A DNA stretch of 39,126 bases. Source: Thermoplasmata archaeon (GTDB lineage Archaea; Thermoplasmatota; Thermoplasmata; Thermoplasmatales; ARK-15). The DNA lies in the NCBI GenBank assembly GCA_023261745.1, contig JAGDXR010000056.1:1-39126 (forward strand), given 5' to 3'. This document shows, piece after piece, positions 8,271-33,481 of this stretch. The notes beneath the pieces were generated by a model. The model was not told the DNA's origin. It did not search any database and saw nothing but the letters and a program-made list of their open reading frames with translations. Within the stretch, counting starts at the first letter, position 1, and the number at the start of each line of letters is the position of its first letter. A program made the translations under genes and the position numbers.

Positions 8271-8993
8271 TTATTTTTTATTGCAGAATTTTCCAAATTT
8301 TCCTATGTATGTGTGGTCCAGTAATAATACATCCATATCCTCTATATTTAAACATTTCGAAAATATCGGACCAGGAGGATCGCTAGCCAGGGACATCCCG
8401 GTATATACATTAAATGATGGTTCAACGATAATTTTTCCTCTGAACATGGGATAATATTTTCTCATCTTTTTGTTTGATTTCCCGATCAGCCATATGGCCG
8501 AATAATTTTTTCCGGATAAATTCATGATACTTATTTCAGGATGTATATGGCCCATGATCAAATATTTCGCATCATTGAGAGAATCTTCAGGCCATGTGTG
8601 ACCGTGCGTCTTGTATATATATCCATCAAGATAGCCTTTGGGAGGATATATTTCTGCATCAATAAATTTTTCAATGTTTCCATCATGATTCCCCTTTACT
8701 ATAGTGACCGAGAATTTATCATTCAAGACATCAAAAAAATTCTTAATCTTTTCCATAATAGATTTTTTTGGAATTTTTATTGAATGTTTAACATCGCCCA
8801 ATATTGTAATCCTATCGACATTCCTTTTTTCTGACATATTCATGATCCTTTTGATCATACTATCTGTGCTGTCCGGGAGTATTATACCTTTTTCAAAGAA
8901 TTCACTCTCTATTCCAATGTGCAGATCCGATATAATCAATTCCTTTTTTTCTGAATTGTAAAGGGCCCTTTCATTCATTATTATTTTGATCAT
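8271..8993 (-). CDS. PdeM/COG1407-type metallophosphoesterase
   Basis: This is a calcineurin-like metallophosphoesterase of about 240 residues. It shows the full metal-binding series in order: SDLHIG (about residues 22-27), LGDVKHS, KGNHDGN, THGHTW and MGHIHPE. The arrangement and the C-terminal half match the COG1407 group, whose bacterial members (PdeM) are associated with DNA ligase and Lhr helicase in DNA repair. Its actual substrate is unknown. The start ATG (8991-8993) lies inside the end of the reductase gene, an overlap of 23 bases, so the two are probably co-transcribed. A gap of 47 bases with a strong ribosome binding site separates it from the large helical-repeat gene. Confidence 0.8.
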   Translation of the reverse strand: MIKIIMNERALYNSEKKELIISDLHIGIESEFFEKGIILPDSTDSMIKRIMNMSEKRNVDRITILGDVKHSIKIPKKSIMEKIKNFFDVLNDKFSVTIVKGNHDGNIEKFIDAEIYPPKGYLDGYIYKTHGHTWPEDSLNDAKYLIMGHIHPEISIMNLSGKNYSAIWLIGKSNKKMRKYYPMFRGKIIVEPSFNVYTGMSLASDPPGPIFSKCLNIEDMDVLLLDHTYIGKFGKFCNKK

Positions 8994-9621
8994 TTTTAAT
9001 TTTTATAAGTATTCCATCGCATAACTTTTCAATATTAATCATTTTAAGTCTGTAAATTTCATTCTCATTCATTGCAGTTTTAAGTGTGGCCATGGGTGGT
9101 GCCTCATGACCTATTATTACAGGAGCCATATATATATTTATTTCATCATAGAATTTTTTTTCAATAAACGATCCTATAACCCTGGATCCTCCTTCCACCA
9201 TCAATCTTTTTATTCCAATTCTGTAAAGATCTTCAAGAACGCACTCCAGGTCAACAATCCCTTCACCACAAATCCTTATTTCTGCATTCAATTTTTTATC
9301 TGGTACTGTTGTAGTATAAATGATTGTTTTAACCGTTCCATCCAGAACCCTGGCATTTTCCGGTATCCTCAGATGCGAATCCAACACAATCCTTACCGGA
9401 TTCCTGACCTCTTCATTTTCAATGTATTTTTTCTTTACTGTCAGTGATGGATCATCTGAAATTATAGTTCCAATACCCACCATTATTCCATCAACGGAAT
9501 TTCTTATTCTGTTTACTCTCTTCATATCCTCCTCACATGAAAGCCTAGTCTGCTCACCCGTTCCCACGGCAAGCCTCCCATCAAGACTTGATGCAAAATT
9601 TATTAATACATACGGTTTCAT
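8971..9621 (-). CDS. 2,5-diamino-6-ribosylaminopyrimidinone 5'-phosphate reductase (RibD C-terminal type)
   Basis: The enzyme reduces the ribosyl side chain of the pyrimidine made from GTP, an early step of archaeal riboflavin (and so FAD and F420) synthesis, using NAD(P)H. The 216-residue chain is a free-standing RibD C-terminal reductase with the DHFR-like fold. Family features include the N-terminal INFASSLDGRLA, the IMVGIGTIISDDPSLTV segment, PVRIVLDS and the glycine motif MVEGGSRVIGSF. Length is normal for the archaeal form. The start ATG shares four bases (ATGA, 9618-9621) with the end of the isoaspartyl dipeptidase gene, and its end overlaps the phosphoesterase gene. No other riboflavin gene is in the window. 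Confidence 0.9.
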   Translation of the reverse strand: MKPYVLINFASSLDGRLAVGTGEQTRLSCEEDMKRVNRIRNSVDGIMVGIGTIISDDPSLTVKKKYIENEEVRNPVRIVLDSHLRIPENARVLDGTVKTIIYTTTVPDKKLNAEIRICGEGIVDLECVLEDLYRIGIKRLMVEGGSRVIGSFIEKKFYDEINIYMAPVIIGHEAPPMATLKTAMNENEIYRLKMINIEKLCDGILIKIKNDQNNNE

Positions 9622-10715
9622 ATTTTATATATCACCCCATTGGAAATATAATATTTTTTATTGAAATCTCTATCCAGAATGAGCATATCCGCCATATATC
9701 CAATATCAATTTTACCCCTTTTCAATTTCAGATATTCCCCTGGATTTTCCGTCATCATTCTGAGTACATCAGTGAAAATATCTTTTTCGTTGTTCCAGGT
9801 ATATTTTAAAATATTATACAGTATCTCCGGATCCGCAACACTCATTTTTACAAATCTTCCATTTTCGTCAAATACAGGTTTCGAACCGTTTCCATCGCTG
9901 GACACAGTCACCCTTTTTAGATCAGCATTATTTTTAATGAGAAATTTAATTGATTCTATAGTTCCTGGAACCTCACCTTCAATGTCCCCTGTAAGATCGA
10001 TTCTTCCACCAAGTTTTAAAAATTCTATTGATTCTTTCAGCAGAACTCTGTTTCGGTCCACATGTGTTGGAAGTATCTGATCTGCAGGGATATCCGTATT
10101 TTCTATTACTTCAATCAATGGCCTGAACATATCCTTTCCATTGCCCAAATGTACATTTACATATCCCGGTTTGCCAGATAATATGCCAGCTCTTCGTGCC
10201 TCAGTTATGTAATTGATTAACATTCTTCTATCAGGATATGAACCCCTGTGATCAGAAACCGCAATTTTCAATCCAATTATTTCTTCTATGAGCATTATGT
10301 CTTTTTCAACACTGCCAGTAAGGGTCAATGGAGGTAATTTATACGAACCGGTCAGTAAAAATGCACTGATGTTATTTTTTCTAAGCAATTTTGCGTGTGC
10401 AAGTAAATTCTCGATATTTCTCGTGATTCCATCGGTTCCCAGAACCCCTACCACTGTTGTAATCCCCGATAATCTCAGCTTTTCAGGTGTCACCGGATAG
10501 GTTCTATATTCAAAGCCTCCCTCACCACCTCCTCCTGCGATGTGGTTGTGAATATCTATAATTCCTGGAATGGCTATATGATCTTCAAAATCCATGAAAC
10601 CAGATATTTCACATACGGCTTCCCTGGTAATGGACTCAATTTTATTGGATATAAGGATATCATTGATACCGAGATACTCAGGAGAATAAACATCCAAATT
10701 TTTCAAAACAATCAT
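9618..10715 (-). CDS. iadA: Isoaspartyl dipeptidase (beta-aspartyl peptidase, M38)
   Basis: The enzyme cleaves beta-linked isoaspartyl dipeptides left after breakdown of aged proteins. It belongs to the amidohydrolase family with a two-zinc site. All expected ligands can be seen: HNH in DIHNHIAGGGGEGG, the lysine likely to be carbamylated in LKIAVSDHRGSYP, histidines in VNVHLGNGKD and PTHVDRN, and the aspartate in SSDGNGS. The C-terminal strand motif GYMADMLILD is typical of the small beta domain. At 365 residues it is slightly shorter than bacterial IadA. It is the first gene of the minus-strand run; the ATG (10713-10715) has no ribosome binding site and a TATA-like TTAAATA lies about 25 bases upstream. 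Confidence 0.9.
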   Translation of the reverse strand: MIVLKNLDVYSPEYLGINDILISNKIESITREAVCEISGFMDFEDHIAIPGIIDIHNHIAGGGGEGGFEYRTYPVTPEKLRLSGITTVVGVLGTDGITRNIENLLAHAKLLRKNNISAFLLTGSYKLPPLTLTGSVEKDIMLIEEIIGLKIAVSDHRGSYPDRRMLINYITEARRAGILSGKPGYVNVHLGNGKDMFRPLIEVIENTDIPADQILPTHVDRNRVLLKESIEFLKLGGRIDLTGDIEGEVPGTIESIKFLIKNNADLKRVTVSSDGNGSKPVFDENGRFVKMSVADPEILYNILKYTWNNEKDIFTDVLRMMTENPGEYLKLKRGKIDIGYMADMLILDRDFNKKYYISNGVIYKI

Positions 10716-10814
10716 ATACTATCATATTAAAAATTAAAGTATTTAATTTTTTAAAAAATATTATGCATTATTAAACATAATTAATTTTAAATTCTTGAAA
10801 AATAATATATTTTC
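10716..10814. promoter_or_regulatory. Divergent promoter region between iadA and AOR genes
   Basis: This A+T-rich spacer serves two divergent genes. Towards iadA, a TATA-like TTAAATA (near 10738-10745, minus strand) sits about 25 bases before its ATG. Towards the oxidoreductase, TTTTAAAT (10785-10792) sits about 25 bases before 10815. Neither gene has a clear ribosome binding site, so both transcripts are likely leaderless. A short imperfect palindrome around 10761-10780 (ATTATGCATTATTAAACATAAT) lies between the two boxes and could be an operator, which is speculative. Confidence 0.4.
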
Positions 10815-12671
10815 ATGTTTGGAATGTTTGGAAGGGTTTATTATATAGATTTATCCAGACAGAAAATAGAGGACATAATAATTGAGGAAGAAATTTACAG
10901 AAAATATTTAGGAGGATACGGCCTTGGAGCTTACTTCTTATTAAAAAACCAGAAAAAGGGAATCGACCCCCTTTCAGAAGAAAGTATAATTGGTTTTATT
11001 CCTGGATTTTTAAATGCCACGGGTGTTCCCATGGCAGGAAGATCAATGTCAGTGGGGAAATCTCCTCTTACAGGGGGTTGGAACGATTCCAATGTTGGAG
11101 GTTACATAGGTCCAGAGATCAAGAGAACAGGATATGATGGTATATTCATAATTGGGAAATCGAATGATCCCGTATACATTTATATTTCAAGGGATATTGA
11201 AATTCTGGATGCCTCTGGGTTATGGGGCATGGATGCAGTGAATACCGAAAAAGAACTGGACAGGATTCACGGGGACGGTGAAATATTAACCATAGGACCG
11301 GCAGGAGAAAAGATGAGCTATATTTCCTCGATAATTACGGATAGGGGAAGGGCTCTGGGAAGAGGTGGCCTTGGAGCGATCATGGGAAGCAAAAATCTCA
11401 AAGCCATATATGTGAAGGGGTTTGAGGATGTTAAAATATATGACAGGCAGAAATTGAGGCAGTATATTTCAGCAATGATGGAAAAGATGAATCCAAGGAA
11501 GAACAGGATTGCTGAATACTGGCACAGATATGGAACCACAGGAGGAAATGAAAGGTCTCATTTATCAGGAGATACACCCATAAAGAACTGGAAGGGCATA
11601 GGCATTAAAGATTTCGGCAGAGAAAATGCCAGGAAGATATCTGGAGATGAAGTCATTAAAGATAATATTCAGAGTTATGGATGTGCTCAGTGTCCGGTCG
11701 CGTGCGGCGCCATAATAAAAAGAAATACAAAATATGGGGAGATAGTGGGTCACAGACTGGAATATGAGGGTCTTGGGATGCTGGGAGGCCTATTATTGAA
11801 TTCTGATCTTGATTCCATAGCATATTCATTTGAGATGGCAAACGAATATGGATATGATGTAATCTCACTGGGAGCAGTTGCAGCATTTGCAGTAGAATGT
11901 TTTGAAACAAATATACTGAATGAAAATCAGCTCGGGATAAAAATGGGCTGGGGAAATCCCGATGCAATTGTAGAATTCATAAAAAACATGGCAAAAAATG
12001 AAGGGATTTATAAGATTTTGAACAGAGGTGTGGCCTATGCATCAAAATATCTCAATGTTCCTGAAGATATGTCAGTACATGTTCACGGTCAGGAATTGCC
12101 TGCTCATGATCCAAAGTATTTGCCATCTCTTGGAACCACATATGTTGCTGATCCAACCCCTGGAAGGCACACAGCCGGAGGCATTGGTTTCAGTGAAGGA
12201 AGTGAATATGTTCCATTTTTTGATATAGGTCTTGAGCCTGTAAAAATAGAAAAATACAGTTATAGAGGAAAGGGAAAATACCAGGCAATTTCATCCATAC
12301 AATCCCAAGTGATAAATTCTCTTGGCTTCTGTCTATTTTCAGATTCATTTTCACCTCTACCAGTTGTTGAAGTCTTGAATGCAGTTACGGGATGGGATAC
12401 AACATCTGAAGAATTGATGATAATAGGTGAAAGGATAATGGATGCAAGAAGGATATTCAATTATCGTGAAAAAGTATATCTCTCTGAAAATGAATTACCT
12501 GGGAGAGCTTCAGGGAGACCACCACATGAAGAAGGTCCACTCAAAGGAATCACAATTGACTGGAAAATTATGGTTGAAGAATTTGCAAAGGAAATGAGAT
12601 GGGATTTAAAGACAGGATTGCCGGACAAGGAAAAATTAAGGGAATTAGATCTAATAGAATTTGTCGATTGA
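10815..12671 (+). CDS. aor: Tungsten aldehyde:ferredoxin oxidoreductase (AOR family)
   Basis: The family oxidises aldehydes to acids at a tungstopterin site and passes electrons through a [4Fe-4S] cluster to ferredoxin. The N-terminus MFGMFGRVYYIDLS aligns without a gap to the family start, which supports the ATG at 10815 over the one at 10824. Pterin-contact regions are visible: GRSMSVGKSPLTGG, GGYIGPEIKRTGYD, RALGRGGLGAIMGSKNLKA and DPTPGRHTAGG. The cluster cysteines are C290-x2-C293-x3-C297 and a fourth near residue 506 (SLGFCLFSD). At 618 residues it is of normal length and looks intact. The true aldehyde (glyceraldehyde, amino-acid-derived or other) cannot be told. It stands alone, and its end overlaps the convergent lyase gene by 21 bases. 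Confidence 0.9.
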   Translation: MFGMFGRVYYIDLSRQKIEDIIIEEEIYRKYLGGYGLGAYFLLKNQKKGIDPLSEESIIGFIPGFLNATGVPMAGRSMSVGKSPLTGGWNDSNVGGYIGPEIKRTGYDGIFIIGKSNDPVYIYISRDIEILDASGLWGMDAVNTEKELDRIHGDGEILTIGPAGEKMSYISSIITDRGRALGRGGLGAIMGSKNLKAIYVKGFEDVKIYDRQKLRQYISAMMEKMNPRKNRIAEYWHRYGTTGGNERSHLSGDTPIKNWKGIGIKDFGRENARKISGDEVIKDNIQSYGCAQCPVACGAIIKRNTKYGEIVGHRLEYEGLGMLGGLLLNSDLDSIAYSFEMANEYGYDVISLGAVAAFAVECFETNILNENQLGIKMGWGNPDAIVEFIKNMAKNEGIYKILNRGVAYASKYLNVPEDMSVHVHGQELPAHDPKYLPSLGTTYVADPTPGRHTAGGIGFSEGSEYVPFFDIGLEPVKIEKYSYRGKGKYQAISSIQSQVINSLGFCLFSDSFSPLPVVEVLNAVTGWDTTSEELMIIGERIMDARRIFNYREKVYLSENELPGRASGRPPHEEGPLKGITIDWKIMVEEFAKEMRWDLKTGLPDKEKLRELDLIEFVD

Positions 12672-13937
12672 ATTAAAAATAATTTCTTTAATTTTTCCAG
12701 GCCTTAATTTATAAATTTTAAACAACTGCTTTATATCCATTTTATCAGATTCCTTAATTATCTTGCTTACATCCTTATAGGGCAATTTTTCCCTGAGCAA
12801 TGCAAGGATTTCCGGATTATACAGCGCAAAATTCTCCATTCTCTTTTTATTTGGCAAAATTAAATTTAAAAATAATATTAATTTTTTGGTTGATTCAATG
12901 GCTATATCAAGGGCCTGAATAGAAATGTACATTTGCAAAGGAAATGAAAGTGAAAGTTCAAATTCTCCAATGATGGAAGAATCTTCAGAAATCTTTGAAA
13001 TTCCCCTCACGTATGTACACCCCAGTAATATTGATTCAAGTGTTACAGGGTTTTTCTTTCCTGGCATTATGCTGCTCCCCTCAATGTCCATATTTTTCAG
13101 TTCAATTTCATTTATCCCCGTAAAAGGTCCAGAAAACATAAGTCTGAGATCCTGAGATATTCTGATAATATCTGAACAGTAAATTGATATTGAATTCAGA
13201 AGGAAAGTAACATCCGTAACAAACTTCATTTTTTCTCCTGGGTCCTTAAGAAGAGTGAAGTTTTCTCCGAAATAATAATTTAAATTTTTTATCAACTCCT
13301 CTTTAAATTTTTCAGAGGAAAGCATTCCCGTCCCCACAGCAGTACCGCCGGCTGGTATATATTTCAAATCTTCAAATGCATCTTCAATCTTTATTAAATC
13401 ATTTTTAATTTTTTCATGATATGATAAAAATTCCAGCCCCAGAGATACTGGAAGAGCATCCCTCAAGTGTGTTCTTCCACTCTTTATATAATATCTGTAT
13501 TTTATTGAAAATTTTTCCAATTCTTTAACTAATTTTTGAATTTCTTTTAACAATGTCATTCTTTCCATGTAAAGAGTGATTCTAAGAACTGAAGGTATAA
13601 CATCATTTGAAGACTGGGATCTGTTCACATCGTCATTGGGATCAATTTCAGTTCTGAAATAATTTCTTGCATAATCACATATCAAATCATTTATGGCCAT
13701 GTTCAATCCTGTTCCGCTTCCCGTCTGAAACACAACTATTTCTGGGAAATCGGATTTTTCTATTATTTTATCACACGAATTTTCTATAACTTCATCCTTA
13801 TTTTTATCAATTAGATTCAGATTAAAATTGGTCTTTGCGGCAATCTTCTTAAATATAACAAGATTTTTGATAAATCTGATGTCAATAATATTTGAGGTCT
13901 CAAGATAATATTTTTTTGCTCTATTATAATAATTCAT
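12651..13937 (-). CDS. Class II fumarase/aspartase superfamily lyase
   Basis: This superfamily reversibly removes water, ammonia or a larger group from succinyl compounds to give fumarate. Motifs in order are QTGSGTGLNMAIND (about residues 71-84), DDVNRSQSSNDVIPS, SGRTHLRDALPVS, PAGGTAVGTG and the signature loop GSSIMPGKKNPV (about 290-301), which holds the catalytic serine. The KKNP in the signature is like argininosuccinate lyases, while fumarases and aspartases have KVNP, so the exact reaction is uncertain; fumarase is most likely on overall pattern, with aspartase next. The length of 428 residues is a little short for fumarase. It is transcribed towards AOR and their ends overlap by 21 bases. 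The ATG (13935-13937) has no ribosome binding site. Confidence 0.82.
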   Translation of the reverse strand: MNYYNRAKKYYLETSNIIDIRFIKNLVIFKKIAAKTNFNLNLIDKNKDEVIENSCDKIIEKSDFPEIVVFQTGSGTGLNMAINDLICDYARNYFRTEIDPNDDVNRSQSSNDVIPSVLRITLYMERMTLLKEIQKLVKELEKFSIKYRYYIKSGRTHLRDALPVSLGLEFLSYHEKIKNDLIKIEDAFEDLKYIPAGGTAVGTGMLSSEKFKEELIKNLNYYFGENFTLLKDPGEKMKFVTDVTFLLNSISIYCSDIIRISQDLRLMFSGPFTGINEIELKNMDIEGSSIMPGKKNPVTLESILLGCTYVRGISKISEDSSIIGEFELSLSFPLQMYISIQALDIAIESTKKLILFLNLILPNKKRMENFALYNPEILALLREKLPYKDVSKIIKESDKMDIKQLFKIYKLRPGKIKEIIFNSIDKFY

Positions 13938-26278: not shown

Positions 26279-29200
26279 TTATCTTTTTTTTCTCTTCAGA
26301 GAAAGAACAATGATCATAATACCTATGATCAATATTATCAGATATTCAAGATAAAAATAATTTCCTTTGTTATTATTTATAATTTCATTTAAATTCTTTG
26401 AAATTGTTACATTTCCAGATGTTATTTTCTGTTTATTGAGCAAAACCGTAAAATTATATTTTCCGGCGGGAACATGAAAAATGAATTCACCATTCTTTGA
26501 ATACAGTGTATAATTGATTTTTTCTCCCAGAATGTCATTTCCATAAAGAATTATTTCCGTGTCAGTCCTGTTCAGGAATGGAACGTATATGGTATAATTG
26601 AAAATCTTAAGAGATACATTTATTCTAATAATCTTCTCTGAACCGTTAATAATCAGGGTTCCATTCGTAATGTTTGTATTTATGTAATATGGTGGATTAA
26701 TCATAAATCTATATGAACCATTTGGAAGAGGAATGGACAGATTATTTTTCAGAGTATAATTCATCCTGTTTACTGAAATATTCAAAGGTATTTTCAATCC
26801 AATCTCTTCGAAAATTACACAATATTTCTGAATTTTCAAGGAAATATGCAATGTTAAATTTTCATTCAGGTAAACGGATGTATTAAAATAGTAACTTCTG
26901 TTTTCGCTGAATGCATAAATATTATAAAATCCCTGAACGAGATATACTGTAAAATTATTCTGACTTACATTATAGCTATTATTATTTATATCCAGATAAT
27001 ATGGGAAAGAATAATTTTCAGTGATAAATGTTAAGGAATACAATCTCGAAAAATATGAAGTTTCATTTATTGGAGATAGAATCTTTACCGTTATATTTTC
27101 GTATTTCCCGGTATAGGATCCATTCCCATTCCCAAGCCAGTACTCAAATTCATAATACCTTTTTTCATAGACATCTATTTTTATTATTTCAGAATAATTA
27201 TAGAATCCTGAATTTATTGAAAATTGAGCTGATCCGGAGGGATTTGAAGATACATTCAGATAAAATTGTTTTATGAAATATACATAAATGGTATAATTAT
27301 TCTTAACATTAACTAATATGGAATTATTCTTTACAAAGATTCTTTCGTATTTATTTATATTAATGTATTTTTCCATCTCAAATTTTATGGTATAATTTTT
27401 AATTTTTACAGTACAATTGCTAACAGAATAATTTATATCATTCAATGTAAAATTGATACTGAACGTTTTTGAATAATTGACAAATATTATATTTAAAAAT
27501 ATATATTTTGAGAAATTCACATATATCGTAATATTTTTTCCATTCACGATAAAATTTCCCGGATTTGCGTAATAATATGTGGAATATGCACTGTAATTGT
27601 ATGATCCGTTGGGCATATATAAATTATAAATCCTGTTTTTTATGCTTATATTGCCGAATCCTGGAATATTCAGATACCATGAAATGTTCATGTTTGAAAT
27701 AAAGGTAACATCATATTTTACCAGATAAAACTCTATATTAATAGTTTTATTTTCATTTAAATATACATGCCCCGATGAAATGTTTGATCTGTATCCACCA
27801 GGTGGTATGATCCTAAATGAATAATTTCCTGGAAGAAGAAATAGTACAATGTTCTCATTTGTAGTATTGTAGTAAATATTGTTTAAATCAATTTTCCAGT
27901 AATAACCATCCGGCAATCCGTATTCATGAAATACAAGAAAATGTCTTTTATTGTATGTCTCGTAGTATTGGAATGAATTCCAGAGACCAGATTGAGGAAA
28001 ACCTCCATTCTGGTTCATGGAAAATATTGAAATGGCCTTGATTCCATTTTTTAACGTGTAATTTATCCTTAGATTCAAATCTTCCATCGTGAATGGCATA
28101 TTTGTTGAATAATTTATATCAGACAGAATAATCATTATCTGAGCCTTTGTAAGATACTGGCCTGTGGAGGAAATGATGCTGTTTACAGCTTCCTGAAAAC
28201 TGTAATTTCCCATATAAAATGTTTCATAAGCCATGATGGCATAATAATCAGCGTAAAGCGGAATTACGGGATGATATATATACCAGAAAAGCATGGAATT
28301 CGGAATGCCGTTATATGCCGGGTCAACAGCCACTATCAGTTTTTTATTAACTTTGTGAAGTGCAATGGAAAAATTGTTCAGGAACATAACAAACCTGAAT
28401 GAATCATTGGTGGAAAAATCTGCATTTGAGGGATTTTCGAAGTCTATTGAATATCCCGAATAATTATATTTCAAAGATAGGTTCACCGCATAACTGATCA
28501 ATTTATCTTGAAGTGAAATATTATATAAAACAAGATCTGTCTTTGAGATATTGTAATCATTTACAATCATGGGAAAAGTTGGAATTTTTAATTTTTCTGA
28601 AATGTTGGTTATGTTATCATCACCGAAATAATTCAAGCTCCCTGAAGAAGTTATATTGTAAGATTCATATTGTATTCCATTCATCAATTCTGAATAATTT
28701 TTAAGATCATTCCAGTATCCATAGTAATCTGGATATATGTATGGAATGAATAGATTCAATATTCCATCATAATAAAAGTTTACATATACTGTTAAATTTT
28801 TGTTTACATACAAATTAATGGTTGCTGGATTTGCAACATATCCCCTGGAAGAAAATGACAGTGTATGATTTCCATTATCAATGTTCAGAGTTACATTTCC
28901 GGTGAAATTGAATGTTACTCCATCAATATTCAGGAACCATGTATGATTTTCAGGGAGATTCAGAGGTATGATGTTAATTTTAGAAACAGTATTAATTAAA
29001 TCCATTGAAAAGTTGAAAGCATTGATGGAACCCCATCCCGAAGCATAATCCCAGCCCTGTTTAGCCCAGTAAATGGTCTCATTGTCATGATATCCTGCGG
29101 GTGTCTGGATGACATCCCAATATGGAGAATATGGTAATTTTTTATTTTCCGATCCAATTCTATAAATTAAAGGATCAATGAACCCAAATTTTTGATTTGT

Positions 29201-30811
29201 GAATGCCACGATATCAGCAATGATTCCAGCGGTTACAGGTGATGAAACCGATGTTCCGGCAATCTGATACGGTCCACCGTTGATAAAAATTTCAGTATTA
29301 TTTCCAATTGAAGATATATCAGCATAATTTCTTCCTTTAACAGAACCTCCATTTTCTATTACCGCTGGAATATCCTGCCATGATGGCATAGGATATATTT
29401 TACTGGTTCCACTGGTAGTGCCATAATGAATATTTCCATATGCAATGGCCGATTGGTCATACCAGACAATCTGATTGTATATCGAATTTGTAACAGGGAC
29501 ACCATATCCATTCAGGACTCCGGATGGACCGTTCATTAATAATGTTGTTCCACCCACGGCTAGAAATCCAGAAGTATCTGTTGCATAATTTGCGGGCATT
29601 GATACATTATCTACATCTCCATAATCTCCAGCTGACGCAAGAAAAGTTGTTCCTGTCGATTCAAGCATAAGAACGTATTCTGCTGAAACATTATCAACCG
29701 GTGCTTCAGAACCGTTGTTATTGTATCCCCCCCAAGAGTTTGATACTGCAACAAGATCATTCAGTTTACTCAGAGAGGCATATTCTTCATCAGGAAAATC
29801 TGTTTCTGATGGACCGGAGGAATTTCCAGGGCCATAAACGCAAAATGCATTCACTCCCGGTGCCATGGTTGTGACCATTTCGAGATCAAGAGTATTTTCA
29901 TAATTGGTTCCCGTGGTATCATTTGTTGCATTTGGACCTGGCATCACTGCACCATCAACAGGATATCCTGAAACTTTTAATTTGACAATATTTCTTTCCC
30001 ACTGAGGAACGGTTAAATTATAATATGAATAAATGTCAGAAGGATTGTATGGTGAAACCTGAAATCCTCCTGAATCAACACCTTCCCATAAAACTGTGGC
30101 AACAGTCAAATTTAATGGAAATACGTGATTTTTTGAATAATTTCCGTAATAGGAATCGTTGAATATTCCGTATACCTGATATGCCTTTTGAAGATCTCCA
30201 CCCCCCTCCTCGCTTATATTTCCATCATATAATTTAATTAAATCAAATTTATAATATATATTATCTGAAAGACCGGAGATACCACTGACATATTCTGCTA
30301 TGCTATATGGAAGCTCCACGGGTGTTACTGGCATGAATACGTATTTTCTGAATCCGTCAGTCTGGAAATAGGCGATTTTGATGTTGAATGCATTTTCAAT
30401 TTTATAAGCCGGAACGTTATGAGCAAATATTGCAAGGTTGTAGGGTCCCGGATATCCTGTGATACCGTAAGATTTCAGATAATTCAATATGAGATCTACA
30501 GTATTATTGGATGGAGAAAATAATCTGTAAAATTCCCCCTTTGAAATAAATTTATGAAATTCCGGGCTATCTGGATTTTCAACACTGGTAAGATAATCAT
30601 TAAGCATATTTATGTTTTTCAATTTTAAGGATATGGAAATATCCATATTTTTATTTGAAGATATGTATTTACAAAAATGATATTCATCTGATTTAAAAAA
30701 TCCGTATGTGTAAACAAAATTTAAATTTGAAGCGCTACCGGAAAATGAGTAAAAAATCTCAAAGATAAAAAATATCATTATAATCAATGCAATGATTTTT
30801 TTTATCAACAT
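26279..30811 (-). CDS. Exported S53 (sedolisin) peptidase with GH18-like barrel and beta-repeat stalk
   Basis: The 1510-residue product has a signal peptide (about 1-27), a kumamolisin-type pro-domain (about 45-185) and an S53 catalytic domain (about 205-605). Catalytic residues are E304 and D308 (ENTLD), oxyanion D395 (SAGD) and S520 (AGTSVSSP); a calcium site is likely in WDVIQ (565) and DYASGWGS. S53 enzymes act at acid pH. After one small beta domain comes a roughly 685-965 segment like a GH18 barrel: GYSIDFE (785-791, keeping D and E but not the first acidic residues) and DYYAIMAYE (854-862). The rest is a series of PEGA-like beta modules (PGNYSF, PNGSYRF, PAGKYNF) with dozens of N-x-S/T sites, then a C-terminal helix and KRKKR, so the protein is cell-surface anchored. 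The ATG lacks a ribosome binding site. It lies 37 bases upstream of nurA on the same strand. Confidence 0.85.
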   Translation of the reverse strand: MLIKKIIALIIMIFFIFEIFYSFSGSASNLNFVYTYGFFKSDEYHFCKYISSNKNMDISISLKLKNINMLNDYLTSVENPDSPEFHKFISKGEFYRLFSPSNNTVDLILNYLKSYGITGYPGPYNLAIFAHNVPAYKIENAFNIKIAYFQTDGFRKYVFMPVTPVELPYSIAEYVSGISGLSDNIYYKFDLIKLYDGNISEEGGGDLQKAYQVYGIFNDSYYGNYSKNHVFPLNLTVATVLWEGVDSGGFQVSPYNPSDIYSYYNLTVPQWERNIVKLKVSGYPVDGAVMPGPNATNDTTGTNYENTLDLEMVTTMAPGVNAFCVYGPGNSSGPSETDFPDEEYASLSKLNDLVAVSNSWGGYNNNGSEAPVDNVSAEYVLMLESTGTTFLASAGDYGDVDNVSMPANYATDTSGFLAVGGTTLLMNGPSGVLNGYGVPVTNSIYNQIVWYDQSAIAYGNIHYGTTSGTSKIYPMPSWQDIPAVIENGGSVKGRNYADISSIGNNTEIFINGGPYQIAGTSVSSPVTAGIIADIVAFTNQKFGFIDPLIYRIGSENKKLPYSPYWDVIQTPAGYHDNETIYWAKQGWDYASGWGSINAFNFSMDLINTVSKINIIPLNLPENHTWFLNIDGVTFNFTGNVTLNIDNGNHTLSFSSRGYVANPATINLYVNKNLTVYVNFYYDGILNLFIPYIYPDYYGYWNDLKNYSELMNGIQYESYNITSSGSLNYFGDDNITNISEKLKIPTFPMIVNDYNISKTDLVLYNISLQDKLISYAVNLSLKYNYSGYSIDFENPSNADFSTNDSFRFVMFLNNFSIALHKVNKKLIVAVDPAYNGIPNSMLFWYIYHPVIPLYADYYAIMAYETFYMGNYSFQEAVNSIISSTGQYLTKAQIMIILSDINYSTNMPFTMEDLNLRINYTLKNGIKAISIFSMNQNGGFPQSGLWNSFQYYETYNKRHFLVFHEYGLPDGYYWKIDLNNIYYNTTNENIVLFLLPGNYSFRIIPPGGYRSNISSGHVYLNENKTINIEFYLVKYDVTFISNMNISWYLNIPGFGNISIKNRIYNLYMPNGSYNYSAYSTYYYANPGNFIVNGKNITIYVNFSKYIFLNIIFVNYSKTFSINFTLNDINYSVSNCTVKIKNYTIKFEMEKYININKYERIFVKNNSILVNVKNNYTIYVYFIKQFYLNVSSNPSGSAQFSINSGFYNYSEIIKIDVYEKRYYEFEYWLGNGNGSYTGKYENITVKILSPINETSYFSRLYSLTFITENYSFPYYLDINNNSYNVSQNNFTVYLVQGFYNIYAFSENRSYYFNTSVYLNENLTLHISLKIQKYCVIFEEIGLKIPLNISVNRMNYTLKNNLSIPLPNGSYRFMINPPYYINTNITNGTLIINGSEKIIRINVSLKIFNYTIYVPFLNRTDTEIILYGNDILGEKINYTLYSKNGEFIFHVPAGKYNFTVLLNKQKITSGNVTISKNLNEIINNNKGNYFYLEYLIILIIGIMIIVLSLKRKKR

Positions 30812-30869: not shown

Positions 30870-32783
30870 TTAATAAAAATTATAAAAAAATTTCAAATAT
30901 TCACATCTGGTCAGTTTTTTACCGTTGAAGTCTATGAAAATATTTCCTTTGAAAAGTTCATCTATATTTCTTCCCTTGATTTTAAATATGTTGCTTCTAT
31001 CAAAATTATAGTCTACATAGTTATTTAGAGGATTGTAGATTTCCGGTATTCCTTTTTCTGAAGGGTATGGAACGGAAAGTATCCATACTCGGTCCATATA
31101 ATCATCGAGCTTTTCAATTTTTATTTCCTCACCATTGTATCTGTAATAATGATATTGTCCATTTAAAATTTTAACAGGCTGTATCAGTGTGCAGAACAGA
31201 GACAATGCATCATTCCTGAAAACTGAAAATATCACCCTTTCTTTATTGATGACATGCATGAGCAATTTACCTGGATTTTTTAAATCACCGTATTCCGCTT
31301 CCACACTGATTCTGTCTTTTCCCTTTACTGCTGTAATATCGGGAGAATTCTCAAATGGCCTTGCAGTTTTTATTTCATAACCAAGTGATATCATGAAAGA
31401 TGCCGTTCTCCTTATAAGATATGCGTGGTATATGGATTCTGTAAAATTTCTCAGATAGCTTTCCGAAATTCTTATACCATTTGTCTCAAGGAATATTTTT
31501 CCATTTTCATTTCTGATCATGTTTTTAAGATTTAAAATTCTTAATACTCTTAGAGGATCCTCATCCGATAAACTTTCAAATTCTCTTACTGCATCCTTTT
31601 CAAATGTGTGGCCATTTCTGTCTGTAAGGGAAATAATCACGGATAACATTTTTATTTCATCGTCATATGCATCACAGTTATCTAAATATTTGGTTGTATC
31701 ATTATCGGTCTTATAATCATCAAAATTTACATTTTCAGTTTTACCATGGCTTATGTTTCCATCATAAAGTAGGAATTGAAATTTTTCCATATTTGTTGTC
31801 ATAAGGATAAATTTGTCTCTGTTCATTGGAATTTTGCCCGATAAAATCTTTGCATCGAATGGTGAAATTCTGAAGATTGCAATATATTCTGAATTGGCCA
31901 TAACAGAATTTACAAGATCTCTATCCATCTGAGAAAGATACTGTGTGGCCATCAGAATTTCAACGCCATATTTTCTTGATTCGCTCAGGAGATTTGGGAG
32001 TATGTAGGGTGAAAAATCCTTTATTTCGTCTATAACAATGATTGAATCTTTTATTATTCCGAATTTCATAAAATTGAATAATATTGCGAGGGTTGATGAG
32101 GCCATCATTCTTGCCGAATTTTCCCCGTAATGCAATTTTTCAAAGTCAAAATACAGATTTTTGCCGGAAAAAAGAAATTCCATATTTCCTCGTGAAGAAA
32201 TGAAATTTTTCAATTTAGTGTTGTTTATTATGGGATTCAATTTGTTTATGAAACTTTGAATATATTCGCTGTACTGATATTTGCTCATATTTCGGAAAAA
32301 TGAATTTTCAGTTATTTTATCCATAACTCTGCTGAAAAGATCTTCGAGCGTGGGATCAGGATTTTCATTGTATATTTCTTTTCCAAATACGGTAAATATA
32401 TTGTCAAGTCTTGGTCCCCACGTGCCATTCGAAAAATCCTCATCCATTGAAAATACCATCTTCAATGTATCAATAACCGTCTGTACCCTATCAGGGTCGG
32501 TGGAATTCATGGTGTTCATCAAATTCATCTTAAAGCAATATTCCTTTCCATTAATGTTTATATGTGAAGGAGAAATGTATATTCCGGTGTTCATTAAACT
32601 TTTTGAAATGTCACCGTGTGGATCAAGAACAATTATCCTTTTATTTTCCCCTATTCTCTTTTTAATTACCATTTTAAGAAAAGTGGATTTTCCATAACCG
32701 GTTTGACCTATTACCAGTCCGTGTCCATTTATCCCATTAATATCATATTTTTTTATGAACGAATATATCCTGTCTATATCCAT
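30870..32783 (-). CDS. VirB4/TraG-like P-loop ATPase with C-terminal PD-(D/E)XK-like domain
   Basis: This is a cytoplasmic HerA/FtsK-clade motor of 637 residues. Walker A is GQTGYGKS (26-33), followed by IIVLDPHGDI; Walker B is SIIVIDEIKDF (247-257), followed by a sensor-like EILMATQYLSQMD. Residues about 385-450 look like a winged helix. Residues about 465-500 read GYEIKTARPFENSPDITAV then ISVEAEYGD, the layout of a restriction-like nuclease core (D482, E495 or E497), with Glu rather than Lys at the last position, so catalysis is unproven. Unlike VirB4 or CedB it starts almost directly at the ATPase core; the missing N-terminal part seems to be the gene just upstream. A strong AAAGGAGG lies eight bases before the ATG, and the two genes overlap by 10 bases. 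DNA transport, processing or defence are all possible. Confidence 0.7.
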   Translation of the reverse strand: MDIDRIYSFIKKYDINGINGHGLVIGQTGYGKSTFLKMVIKKRIGENKRIIVLDPHGDISKSLMNTGIYISPSHININGKEYCFKMNLMNTMNSTDPDRVQTVIDTLKMVFSMDEDFSNGTWGPRLDNIFTVFGKEIYNENPDPTLEDLFSRVMDKITENSFFRNMSKYQYSEYIQSFINKLNPIINNTKLKNFISSRGNMEFLFSGKNLYFDFEKLHYGENSARMMASSTLAILFNFMKFGIIKDSIIVIDEIKDFSPYILPNLLSESRKYGVEILMATQYLSQMDRDLVNSVMANSEYIAIFRISPFDAKILSGKIPMNRDKFILMTTNMEKFQFLLYDGNISHGKTENVNFDDYKTDNDTTKYLDNCDAYDDEIKMLSVIISLTDRNGHTFEKDAVREFESLSDEDPLRVLRILNLKNMIRNENGKIFLETNGIRISESYLRNFTESIYHAYLIRRTASFMISLGYEIKTARPFENSPDITAVKGKDRISVEAEYGDLKNPGKLLMHVINKERVIFSVFRNDALSLFCTLIQPVKILNGQYHYYRYNGEEIKIEKLDDYMDRVWILSVPYPSEKGIPEIYNPLNNYVDYNFDRSNIFKIKGRNIDELFKGNIFIDFNGKKLTRCEYLKFFYNFY

Positions 32784-33439
32784 AGTAATTTCCTCCTTTC
32801 TTCATTTTTTACAGGTGGTATCAGGAAATAGGAAATTTCGGATGGATCCATGATCATTTTTTTCCCATTTTTTACAATTGCTTGACCTGTAAAAGGATCC
32901 CTGATGAAAATATCCATATCCAAATCGGTGAAAATTTCAGCCTCGTACATTTCTGAATTTATCTTCTTTTCAACCAATCCTCTCCGATATCTGTTATTTA
33001 TATGTTTAGCAAATTTTTTGGCAATGAATCTTGAATATACTCTCTTTTTTCTTGCCATAAAGATAAAATATTTGGCACCTTTCTTTTCCATTGCAAAATA
33101 TATGTCTGAAAATATGTTATGTTTTGGATAATAAGGAATATAATAGTTTTTAGAAAAACCGTATCTGTACAGGCCATCAATTTTGTATGCATTTACATAT
33201 TCTGTAAATTTTCCCGGTACAACGTTTTCATAATAGAGATATGCAGGTTCATGGTTTTCAAAAAGAGCAAATCTATAATCCGTGCCATCAAAATAGATCA
33301 TTGAGGATATTTCGTCAGAAGAGCTTGCAAGGTAAAAAACATCTTTCAAAATATTTTGAAAATTTTCCCTCAAAAAATCGGGATCAGGTTTAAAAATTTT
33401 AAAATAATTTATATAATATAGACTCTCAACTCCTTTCAT
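32774..33439 (-). CDS. Possible detached N-terminal domain of a VirB4/HerA-type ATPase
   Basis: The 221-residue soluble protein has no membrane helix and no enzyme motif I can name. Residues 110-180 read like the mixed alpha/beta domain in front of VirB4-type motors: AKYFIFMARKKRVYSRFIAKK, then VEKKINSEMYEAEIF with strand-forming ends. Residues 196-209 (MIMDPSEISYFLIPP) resemble the LSTEELATLxHPP-like peptide that commonly joins that domain to the P-loop domain. The next gene begins exactly at such a P-loop domain, overlapping by 10 bases. I infer that the pair equals one split motor; this needs structural comparison. GAGGTG lies just before the ATG (33437-33439). The SDR gene ends 42 bases upstream on the same strand. 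Confidence 0.55.
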   Translation of the reverse strand: MKGVESLYYINYFKIFKPDPDFLRENFQNILKDVFYLASSSDEISSMIYFDGTDYRFALFENHEPAYLYYENVVPGKFTEYVNAYKIDGLYRYGFSKNYYIPYYPKHNIFSDIYFAMEKKGAKYFIFMARKKRVYSRFIAKKFAKHINNRYRRGLVEKKINSEMYEAEIFTDLDMDIFIRDPFTGQAIVKNGKKMIMDPSEISYFLIPPVKNEERRKLLWI

Positions 33440-33481
33440 TTTTACACCTCCAGAAAATCGCCGGTTAAAAGGTTTCGTTAA

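What the first reader, a model, noticed from the sequence alone, without database searches (positions are those of the whole stretch)
30870..33439. Split VirB4/HerA-type motor with a nuclease-like tail
Two overlapping genes look like one motor cut in two: the 221-residue product ends in a linker-like peptide (MDPSEISYFLIPP), and the next product starts 20 residues before a Walker A motif. The motor also carries a winged-helix-like part and a PD-(D/E)XK-like core (SPDITAV, then SVEAEYG). No membrane channel protein lies beside it, so it may not be a secretion system; a DNA-processing or defence role is possible. It sits about 4.6 kb upstream of the nurA-herA-mre11-rad50 operon.
Basis: partly seen in the sequence, partly recalled or inferred. 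Interest (0 to 1): 0.72.

Follow-up and report, generated by a model that had tools for sequence, protein, structure and literature searches.

The report
Split DNA pump with nuclease tail
Two overlapping genes in an archaeon of the Thermoplasma order appear to encode one ring-shaped DNA pump split into two proteins and carrying its own DNA-cutting domain; it is inherited across the order, but what it does in the cell is still unknown.

Summary
The 637-aa protein (30870-32783, minus) is a DUF87/TrwB-type FtsK-HerA ATPase with a winged helix (res. 374-432) and a restriction-like core (449-546). The core has a D482...E495-x-E497 site (BamHI/OkrAI-type, E in place of K) with H453. All 50 distinct motors that are not cut short carry this tail.

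The 221-aa upstream protein (10-bp overlap) is most likely the motor's missing N-terminal domain. Its predicted structure best matches phage proteins that fuse this domain to such a motor (Foldseek E 4e-5). The split partner in another archaeal family matches the same phage domain by profile (97%, P 1e-11). Translationally coupled partners occur in family f1, all 14 f3 genomes, the probable Thermoplasma genus and f26. Most f6 genomes have the motor without one.

The gene tree follows the taxonomy, so the gene is vertical and chromosomal, which speaks against defence. Closeness to nurA-herA-mre11-rad50 is real but not conserved. A membrane DNA-import-like cluster (VirB4 plus 7-TM protein) lies on another contig of the genome.

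Best mechanism: an ATP-driven DNA translocase cutting the DNA it moves. Cellular role unresolved. New variant of a known kind.

The parts
32774..33439 (-). Partner, 221 aa: separate N-terminal domain of the motor
   Evidence: ORF; conserved upstream and overlapping in f1, f3, g11, f26; AlphaFold2 pTM 0.78, pLDDT 75.8; Foldseek viral top hits are phage ATPases with this N-domain
33447..33452 (-). Shine-Dalgarno-like GGAGGT of the partner gene
   Evidence: sequence
32774..32783 (-). 10-bp overlap ATGGATATAG: partner stop and motor start, suggesting translational coupling
   Evidence: overlaps of 7-38 bp in relatives
32792..32796 (-). Shine-Dalgarno-like GGAGG of the motor gene, inside the partner ORF
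   Evidence: sequence
30870..32783 (-). Motor-nuclease protein, 637 aa
31749..32783 (-). ATPase (motor) domain, residues 1-345
   Evidence: DUF87 4.5e-12, TrwB_AAD_bind 2.4e-4; phrog_5156 4.5e-13
32685..32708 (-). Walker A GQTGYGKS, residues 26-33
   Evidence: sequence; G26, G29, G31 and K32 nearly invariant
32025..32042 (-). Walker B IIVIDE, residues 248-253
   Evidence: D252 and E253 invariant in 27 rows
31488..31664 (-). Winged helix, residues 374-432
   Evidence: model helices 374-390, 395-405, 410-419 and wing strands; MarR-fold Foldseek hits; HTH Pfam hits at the same place in relatives
31146..31439 (-). PD-(D/E)XK-like core, residues 449-546; H453, D482, E495, E497, D500

Best explanation
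The two genes make one DNA-translocating machine. The 637-aa protein forms the ring-type ATPase of the TraG/VirD4-HerA branch of the FtsK-HerA superfamily and pumps DNA. The 221-aa protein is its N-terminal domain, made as a separate, translationally coupled subunit, which would sit on the ring as the fused domain does in relatives. The C-terminal winged helix binds DNA and the D-ExE restriction-like core cuts it as it is moved. The pair is a vertically inherited chromosomal locus of Thermoplasmatales, so it most likely serves the cell's own DNA processing (recombination or cell-to-cell DNA exchange). Supported by computation: domain content, split, conservation of the active sites, vertical descent. 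Inferred: hexamer, translocation, cleavage, partner binding, cellular role.
For: Motor: Pfam DUF87/TrwB, invariant Walker B and WGPR motifs, match to Sulfolobus plasmid type-IV-secretion ATPases. Nuclease: invariant H, D, E, E over 26 rows; single members hit REase_MTES_1575 8.6e-5, CoiA_nuc 0.005 and Replic_Relax 0.012; the profile aligns on the active site of OkrAI, E 0.14; model pLDDT 80.8 with H-E-E-E-H-E order, Foldseek Hjc and HindIII; tail in all 50 motors not cut by a contig end. Split: partner model matches Slash_94 (E 4e-5) and phage G gp156 (E 2.5e-3); HMM shows the N-domain in Slash_94, E 1e-30; f26 partner against the phage N-domain 97.4%, P 1e-11; f1 against f3 partner P 7e-5; 14 of 14 f3 motors have it. 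Vertical: f1, f3 and f6 are each one clade.
Against: No PDB structure matches the partner model, and the tail model's PDB matches are weak (E about 0.02). The window partner has no direct sequence match to any fused N-domain. Many f6 genomes have the motor with no such partner, so the partner is not always needed or has diverged beyond recognition. No complex was modelled and there is no experiment. K is replaced by E in the active site, so activity is plausible but not assured.
Confidence: 0.7

Rival explanations
1. Role rival 1: coupling protein and relaxase-like nuclease for a type-IV-secretion-like DNA exchange system. The motor feeds DNA that its own PD-(D/E)XK tail has cut to the membrane import/export cluster coded elsewhere in the genome.
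For: Kin of TraG/VirD4 ATPases (a Cuniculiplasma protein, probably an orthologue, is listed as arCOG04816 TraG/TraD/VirD4 in PMC5155288); NCBIfam CedD partial hit 2.5e-5; own genome has VirB4 (CD1110-like 3.8e-28, CedB 5e-7) with 7-TM and 2-TM proteins; PMC9905601 and PMC11868833 note that archaeal DNA exchange lacks bacterial-type relaxases.
Against: The VirB4 cluster is also found in several f4 genomes that lack the motor-nuclease, so the two are not tied; no gene clustering; no membrane anchor seen; Replic_Relax found only weakly in one member and nowhere by genome search, whose positive control was also silent.
Confidence: 0.22
2. Role rival 2: recombination/repair machine parallel to HerA-NurA, an ATPase ring with its nuclease in cis that resects or trims chromosomal DNA ends.
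For: HerA-NurA logic of motor plus nuclease; no membrane anchor seen; vertical and chromosomal; Hjc-like core among Foldseek hits; near nurA-herA-mre11-rad50 in the window.
Against: That neighbourhood is not conserved; canonical nurA-herA is present anyway; absence from whole genera of f6 and from f4 shows that it is dispensable.
Confidence: 0.35
3. Role rival 3: defence system that pumps and shreds invading DNA, like HerA-nuclease defence pairs or MADS.
For: PADLOC mad8 3.4e-14 and several defence HerA models; motor plus nuclease is a known defence design (HerA-DUF4297, PMC11291478, abstract seen).
Against: Gene tree agrees with the taxonomy; all multiply sampled genera are coherent; stable neighbours; no methylase or other defence gene beside it.
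Confidence: 0.2
4. The 221-aa protein is an unrelated small protein that merely overlaps the motor gene.
For: No Pfam, NCBIfam or PHROG hit and no PDB fold match.
Against: Conserved upstream and overlapping in four lineages; fold match to phage proteins with the N-domain; the f26 partner is homologous to the fused domain.
Confidence: 0.1

Closest known systems
TraG/TraD/VirD4-family ATPase of Thermoplasmatales (arCOG04816; C. divulgatum CSP5_0791, PMC5155288)
   Same: Probably the orthologous family: the motor in a genome of C. divulgatum size (G021) lies where CSP5_0791 is expected; inferred from position, not by locus tag
   Different: The passage in that paper names neither the nuclease tail nor a split N-domain; the Cuniculiplasma form has no overlapping partner of this kind
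Bacillus phage G gp156 / SPO1 gp27.4 / Slash_94 family (phrog_5156)
   Same: Same motor (E 4.5e-13) and same N-domain fold
   Different: N-domain in one chain with the motor start; no nuclease tail matched
HerA-NurA (archaeal end resection)
   Same: HerA central domain; motor-plus-nuclease logic
   Different: NurA is a separate RNase-H-fold nuclease; HerA has its own N-terminal barrel, and this protein scores 15.8 of the 970 bits required by the HerA model
CedB/CedD and VirB4/TedB
   Same: FtsK-HerA DNA-transfer ATPases; CedB and CedD each match a different part of the VirB4 N-domain (PMC11868833), a precedent for dividing it between proteins
   Different: No nuclease tail; membrane-associated; a separate VirB4 is present in this genome
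MOB_C-type relaxases (TraX of pAD1, MobC; Replic_Relax PF13814), recalled from memory
   Same: Winged helix plus PD-(D/E)XK-like core with an acidic residue in place of K
   Different: Only one member scores, weakly (0.012)
BamHI/OkrAI restriction enzymes
   Same: D...E-x-E site; the profile alignment falls on it
   Different: Not significant by E-value (0.14); free restriction enzymes without a motor

Membership tests
FtsK-HerA superfamily (DUF87/TrwB branch) | Walker A and B with superfamily sequence profile | tested here: met
   DUF87 47 bits against cut-off 23.2; TrwB_AAD_bind 20.6 against 20.5; invariant D252, E253
HerA | HerA equivalog score and N-terminal barrel | tested here: not met
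   NF040819 15.8 bits against 970; only about 25 residues precede Walker A
VirB4 | VirB4 family score | tested here: not met
   TIGR00929 20.2 against 643; CD1110 34.7 against 325
VirD4/TraG coupling protein | Motor kinship to TrwB/TraG | tested here: inconclusive
   TrwB_AAD_bind just above its cut-off; TraG-D_C 18.3 against 22
VirD4/TraG coupling protein | N-terminal membrane anchor | tested here: not met
   No hydrophobic segment in the partner; a simple hydropathy scan gives one segment in the motor, and only about 25 residues precede Walker A
PD-(D/E)XK nuclease | alpha-beta-beta-beta-alpha-beta core in order | tested here: met
   AlphaFold2 model H107-122, E126-129, E139-143, E146-152, H160-169, E173-178 in fragment numbering
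PD-(D/E)XK nuclease | D...(D/E)-x-K active site | tested here: inconclusive
   D...E-x-E, invariant; E in place of K as in BamHI (own knowledge)
PD-(D/E)XK nuclease | Significant match to a solved nuclease | tested here: inconclusive
   OkrAI E 0.14; Hjc E 0.024
MOB_C relaxase (Replic_Relax) | Profile score over cut-off | tested here: not met
   One member at 0.012; genome search without hits, control also silent
Split motor (N-domain as separate gene) | Partner homologous to the fused N-domain | tested here: met
   f26 partner by profile; window partner by predicted structure only
Split motor (N-domain as separate gene) | Partner binds the motor | not testable with these tools
   No complex prediction available
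MADS defence (mad8) | Other mad genes beside it | tested here: not met
   Adjacent genes are an epimerase-like and a protease gene; no methylase seen

The most novel reading that the evidence does not exclude
The pair is the missing DNA-processing and coupling unit of archaeal cell-to-cell DNA exchange: a single translocase that both cuts the DNA, in the place of a relaxase, and delivers it to the Ced-like membrane pore coded elsewhere in the genome.
Probability: 0.18. Interest if true: 0.85.

Novelty: new variant of a known kind. Interest (0 to 1): 0.52.

Why it matters
Archaeal DNA exchange has no known relaxase (PMC9905601, PMC11868833), and one published proposal is that HerA-NurA makes the transferred strand. 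A vertically inherited translocase with a built-in nuclease, present in genomes whose sizes fit T. acidophilum, T. volcanium and C. divulgatum, is a concrete and testable candidate for that step or for a second resection pathway. It also shows how an FtsK-HerA N-domain can be kept as a separate subunit in several lineages.

Tried and rejected
Sequence comparison of the window partner with fused N-domains (paralogues L049/L050, f3 VirB4 pair, L104-L112, phage profile): nothing; only structure linked it. Partner against PDB by Foldseek: no match. Partner against phages by tblastn: none. Programmed frameshift joining the ORFs: considered from the sequence and rejected; no slippery site seen, each gene has its own SD-like site, and the relative frame differs between families. 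Close relatives by single-protein scan in genome contigs and viral contigs: none. Literature on arCOG04816: one paper. [quoted passage not shown] Replic_Relax genome search: uninformative because its control was silent. Nearness to nurA-herA: considered as a functional link, set aside as not conserved. Co-occurrence with the Ced-like cluster: that cluster is too widespread to inform. The upstream 290-308-aa gene of several f6 genomes: no known family; not taken as the N-domain because f3 genomes have it besides their partner. MAFFT could not align f1 and f3 partners well in the middle, so the partner model rests on a shallow and partly misaligned alignment.

Full report
Observation. The motor scores with DUF87 (4.5e-12) and marginally with TrwB_AAD_bind; the partner scores with nothing in Pfam, NCBIfam or PHROGs. 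The nurA-herA-mre11 genes lie 4.6 kb downstream, beyond a 1510-aa kumamolisin-like protease; Rad50 was recognised by eye only.

Relatives. A search of 101 related genomes found the motor in the window's own family f1, in f3, and in most genera of f6. It is missing from f4 and from some f6 genera (only weak HerA-type hits). Named MAG records of the same kin include I-plasma and E-plasma.

Nuclease tail. Alignment of 26 C-termini leaves H453, D482, E495 and E497 (window numbering) invariant and D500 nearly so, although identity to the window is mostly 13-40% (numbering). Single members hit PD-(D/E)XK families in Pfam, and the profile's best PDB alignment falls on the OkrAI active site, though at E 0.14. 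The AlphaFold2 model of residues 345-637 (pLDDT 80.8) shows a winged helix and then the restriction-like core in the right order. Foldseek lists Holliday junction resolvases, HindIII and MarR-type winged helices, each with weak E-values of 0.02-0.1. In a census, 50 of 51 distinct motors carry the tail and the remaining one is cut by a contig end; D...ExE is seen by a simple pattern in 46 of 50, and the four others are distant outgroup proteins with partial alignments. The f6 forms have a much shorter linker where the winged helix sits in the window protein. The site is D-ExE, as in BamHI (own knowledge), rather than D-ExK.

Split N-domain. In f1 the partner (218-221 aa) overlaps the motor by 7-10 bp. 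In f3 all 14 genomes with a complete motor have a partner of about 167-215 aa overlapping it by 8-38 bp. The probable Thermoplasma genus g11 has a 206-208-aa gene overlapping by 8 bp, and the distant family f26 a 284-304-aa one. f1 and f3 partners are related (hhalign 63%, P 7e-5); the g11 gene matches neither by sequence and is called a partner by position only. The f26 partner matches the N-terminal domain of fused phage ATPases at 97.4%, P 1e-11 over 208 columns. The window partner, too diverged for that, was modelled (pTM 0.78, pLDDT 75.8). Foldseek against viral models puts first Slash 551 aa (E 4e-5), an unnamed 327-aa protein (1e-4), phage G gp156 (2.5e-3), phage JL 913 aa (2.8e-3) and phage G gp155 (0.011). 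Phage G gp155 and gp156 are annotated as VirB-like and ATP-binding, and Slash_94 was shown by HMM to hold the same N-domain (E 1e-30) in front of the start of a motor that continues in Slash_95. The window motor itself matches phrog_5156 (4.5e-13) and phage G gp156 (5e-5). Two routes therefore meet at the same fused family. PDB has no match for the partner model. The coordinates of the Foldseek alignments are not printed; that the N-domain is the part matched is inferred.

Descent and context. A tree of 46 motors places f1, f3 and f6 each as one clade, with the multiply sampled genera coherent, apart from a second, long-branched copy in one g28 genome, so the gene is vertical. f3 motors sit beside PTPS and QueC genes, an epimerase-like gene is shared as a neighbour by f1 and f3, and no methylase or other defence gene was seen. 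HerA is not nearby in relatives whose flanks are long enough. Most f6 motors have unrelated upstream genes such as citrate synthase, an archaellum FlaJ-like gene or an uncharacterised 290-308-aa gene.

Other machinery. The window's genome has a fused 844-aa paralogue and, on contig C8, VirB4 with 7-TM and 2-TM proteins resembling Ced/Ted DNA-import clusters. That VirB4 is near universal in the order and also occurs in several f4 genomes that lack the motor-nuclease, so co-occurrence does not tie the two systems. The nearest plasmid relatives include ATPases of Sulfolobus plasmids, one of them typed conjugative.

Conclusion. A split, nuclease-tailed DNA translocase of the TraG/VirD4-HerA branch, chromosomal and vertically inherited. 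The machine's general mechanism is inferred with fair confidence; the cellular role (recombination, DNA exchange or defence) is not decided by these data. The confidences given to the role rivals are for the role and can hold together with the general mechanism.

Noticed in passing
G000 contig C8 (L206): 9108-10682, 10648-10947, 10923-11630, 11631-12635, 12639-12980 (-): Ced/Ted-like DNA-import cluster: CD1110/CedB-like VirB4, a 3-TM protein, a 1-TM protein, a 7-TM VirB6-like protein and a 2-TM pilin-like protein; VirB4 is near universal in the order.
   Followed up: partly
G000 contig C46 (L049) 8900-11434 (+): 844-aa paralogue with an N-domain fused to the same kind of motor and no recognisable nuclease tail; beside a Hef-like helicase in f1 genomes.
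   Followed up: partly
L058, L059, L061, L062: f3 genomes carry two tandem overlapping VirB4-like ATPases (about 527 and 677-700 aa), possibly a CedB/CedD-like pair.
   Followed up: no
L178-L183 (f7 genomes): Large fused motors (830-1190 aa), several per genome, some with a diverged ExE tail.
   Followed up: partly
L044 8307-9191, L037 5366-6274 and others: Uncharacterised 290-308-aa protein directly upstream of the motor in several f6 genera and near it in f3; no Pfam or NCBIfam hit.
   Followed up: partly
L031 3040-3543, L033 2569-3078: Uncharacterised 167-169-aa gene overlapping the partner gene in two f1 genomes, absent from the window.
   Followed up: partly
L036 and L043: In genus g16 the motor gene directly follows what looks like the archaellum operon.
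   Followed up: no
window 26279-30811 (-): 1510-aa kumamolisin-like protease between the motor gene and nurA.
   Followed up: partly
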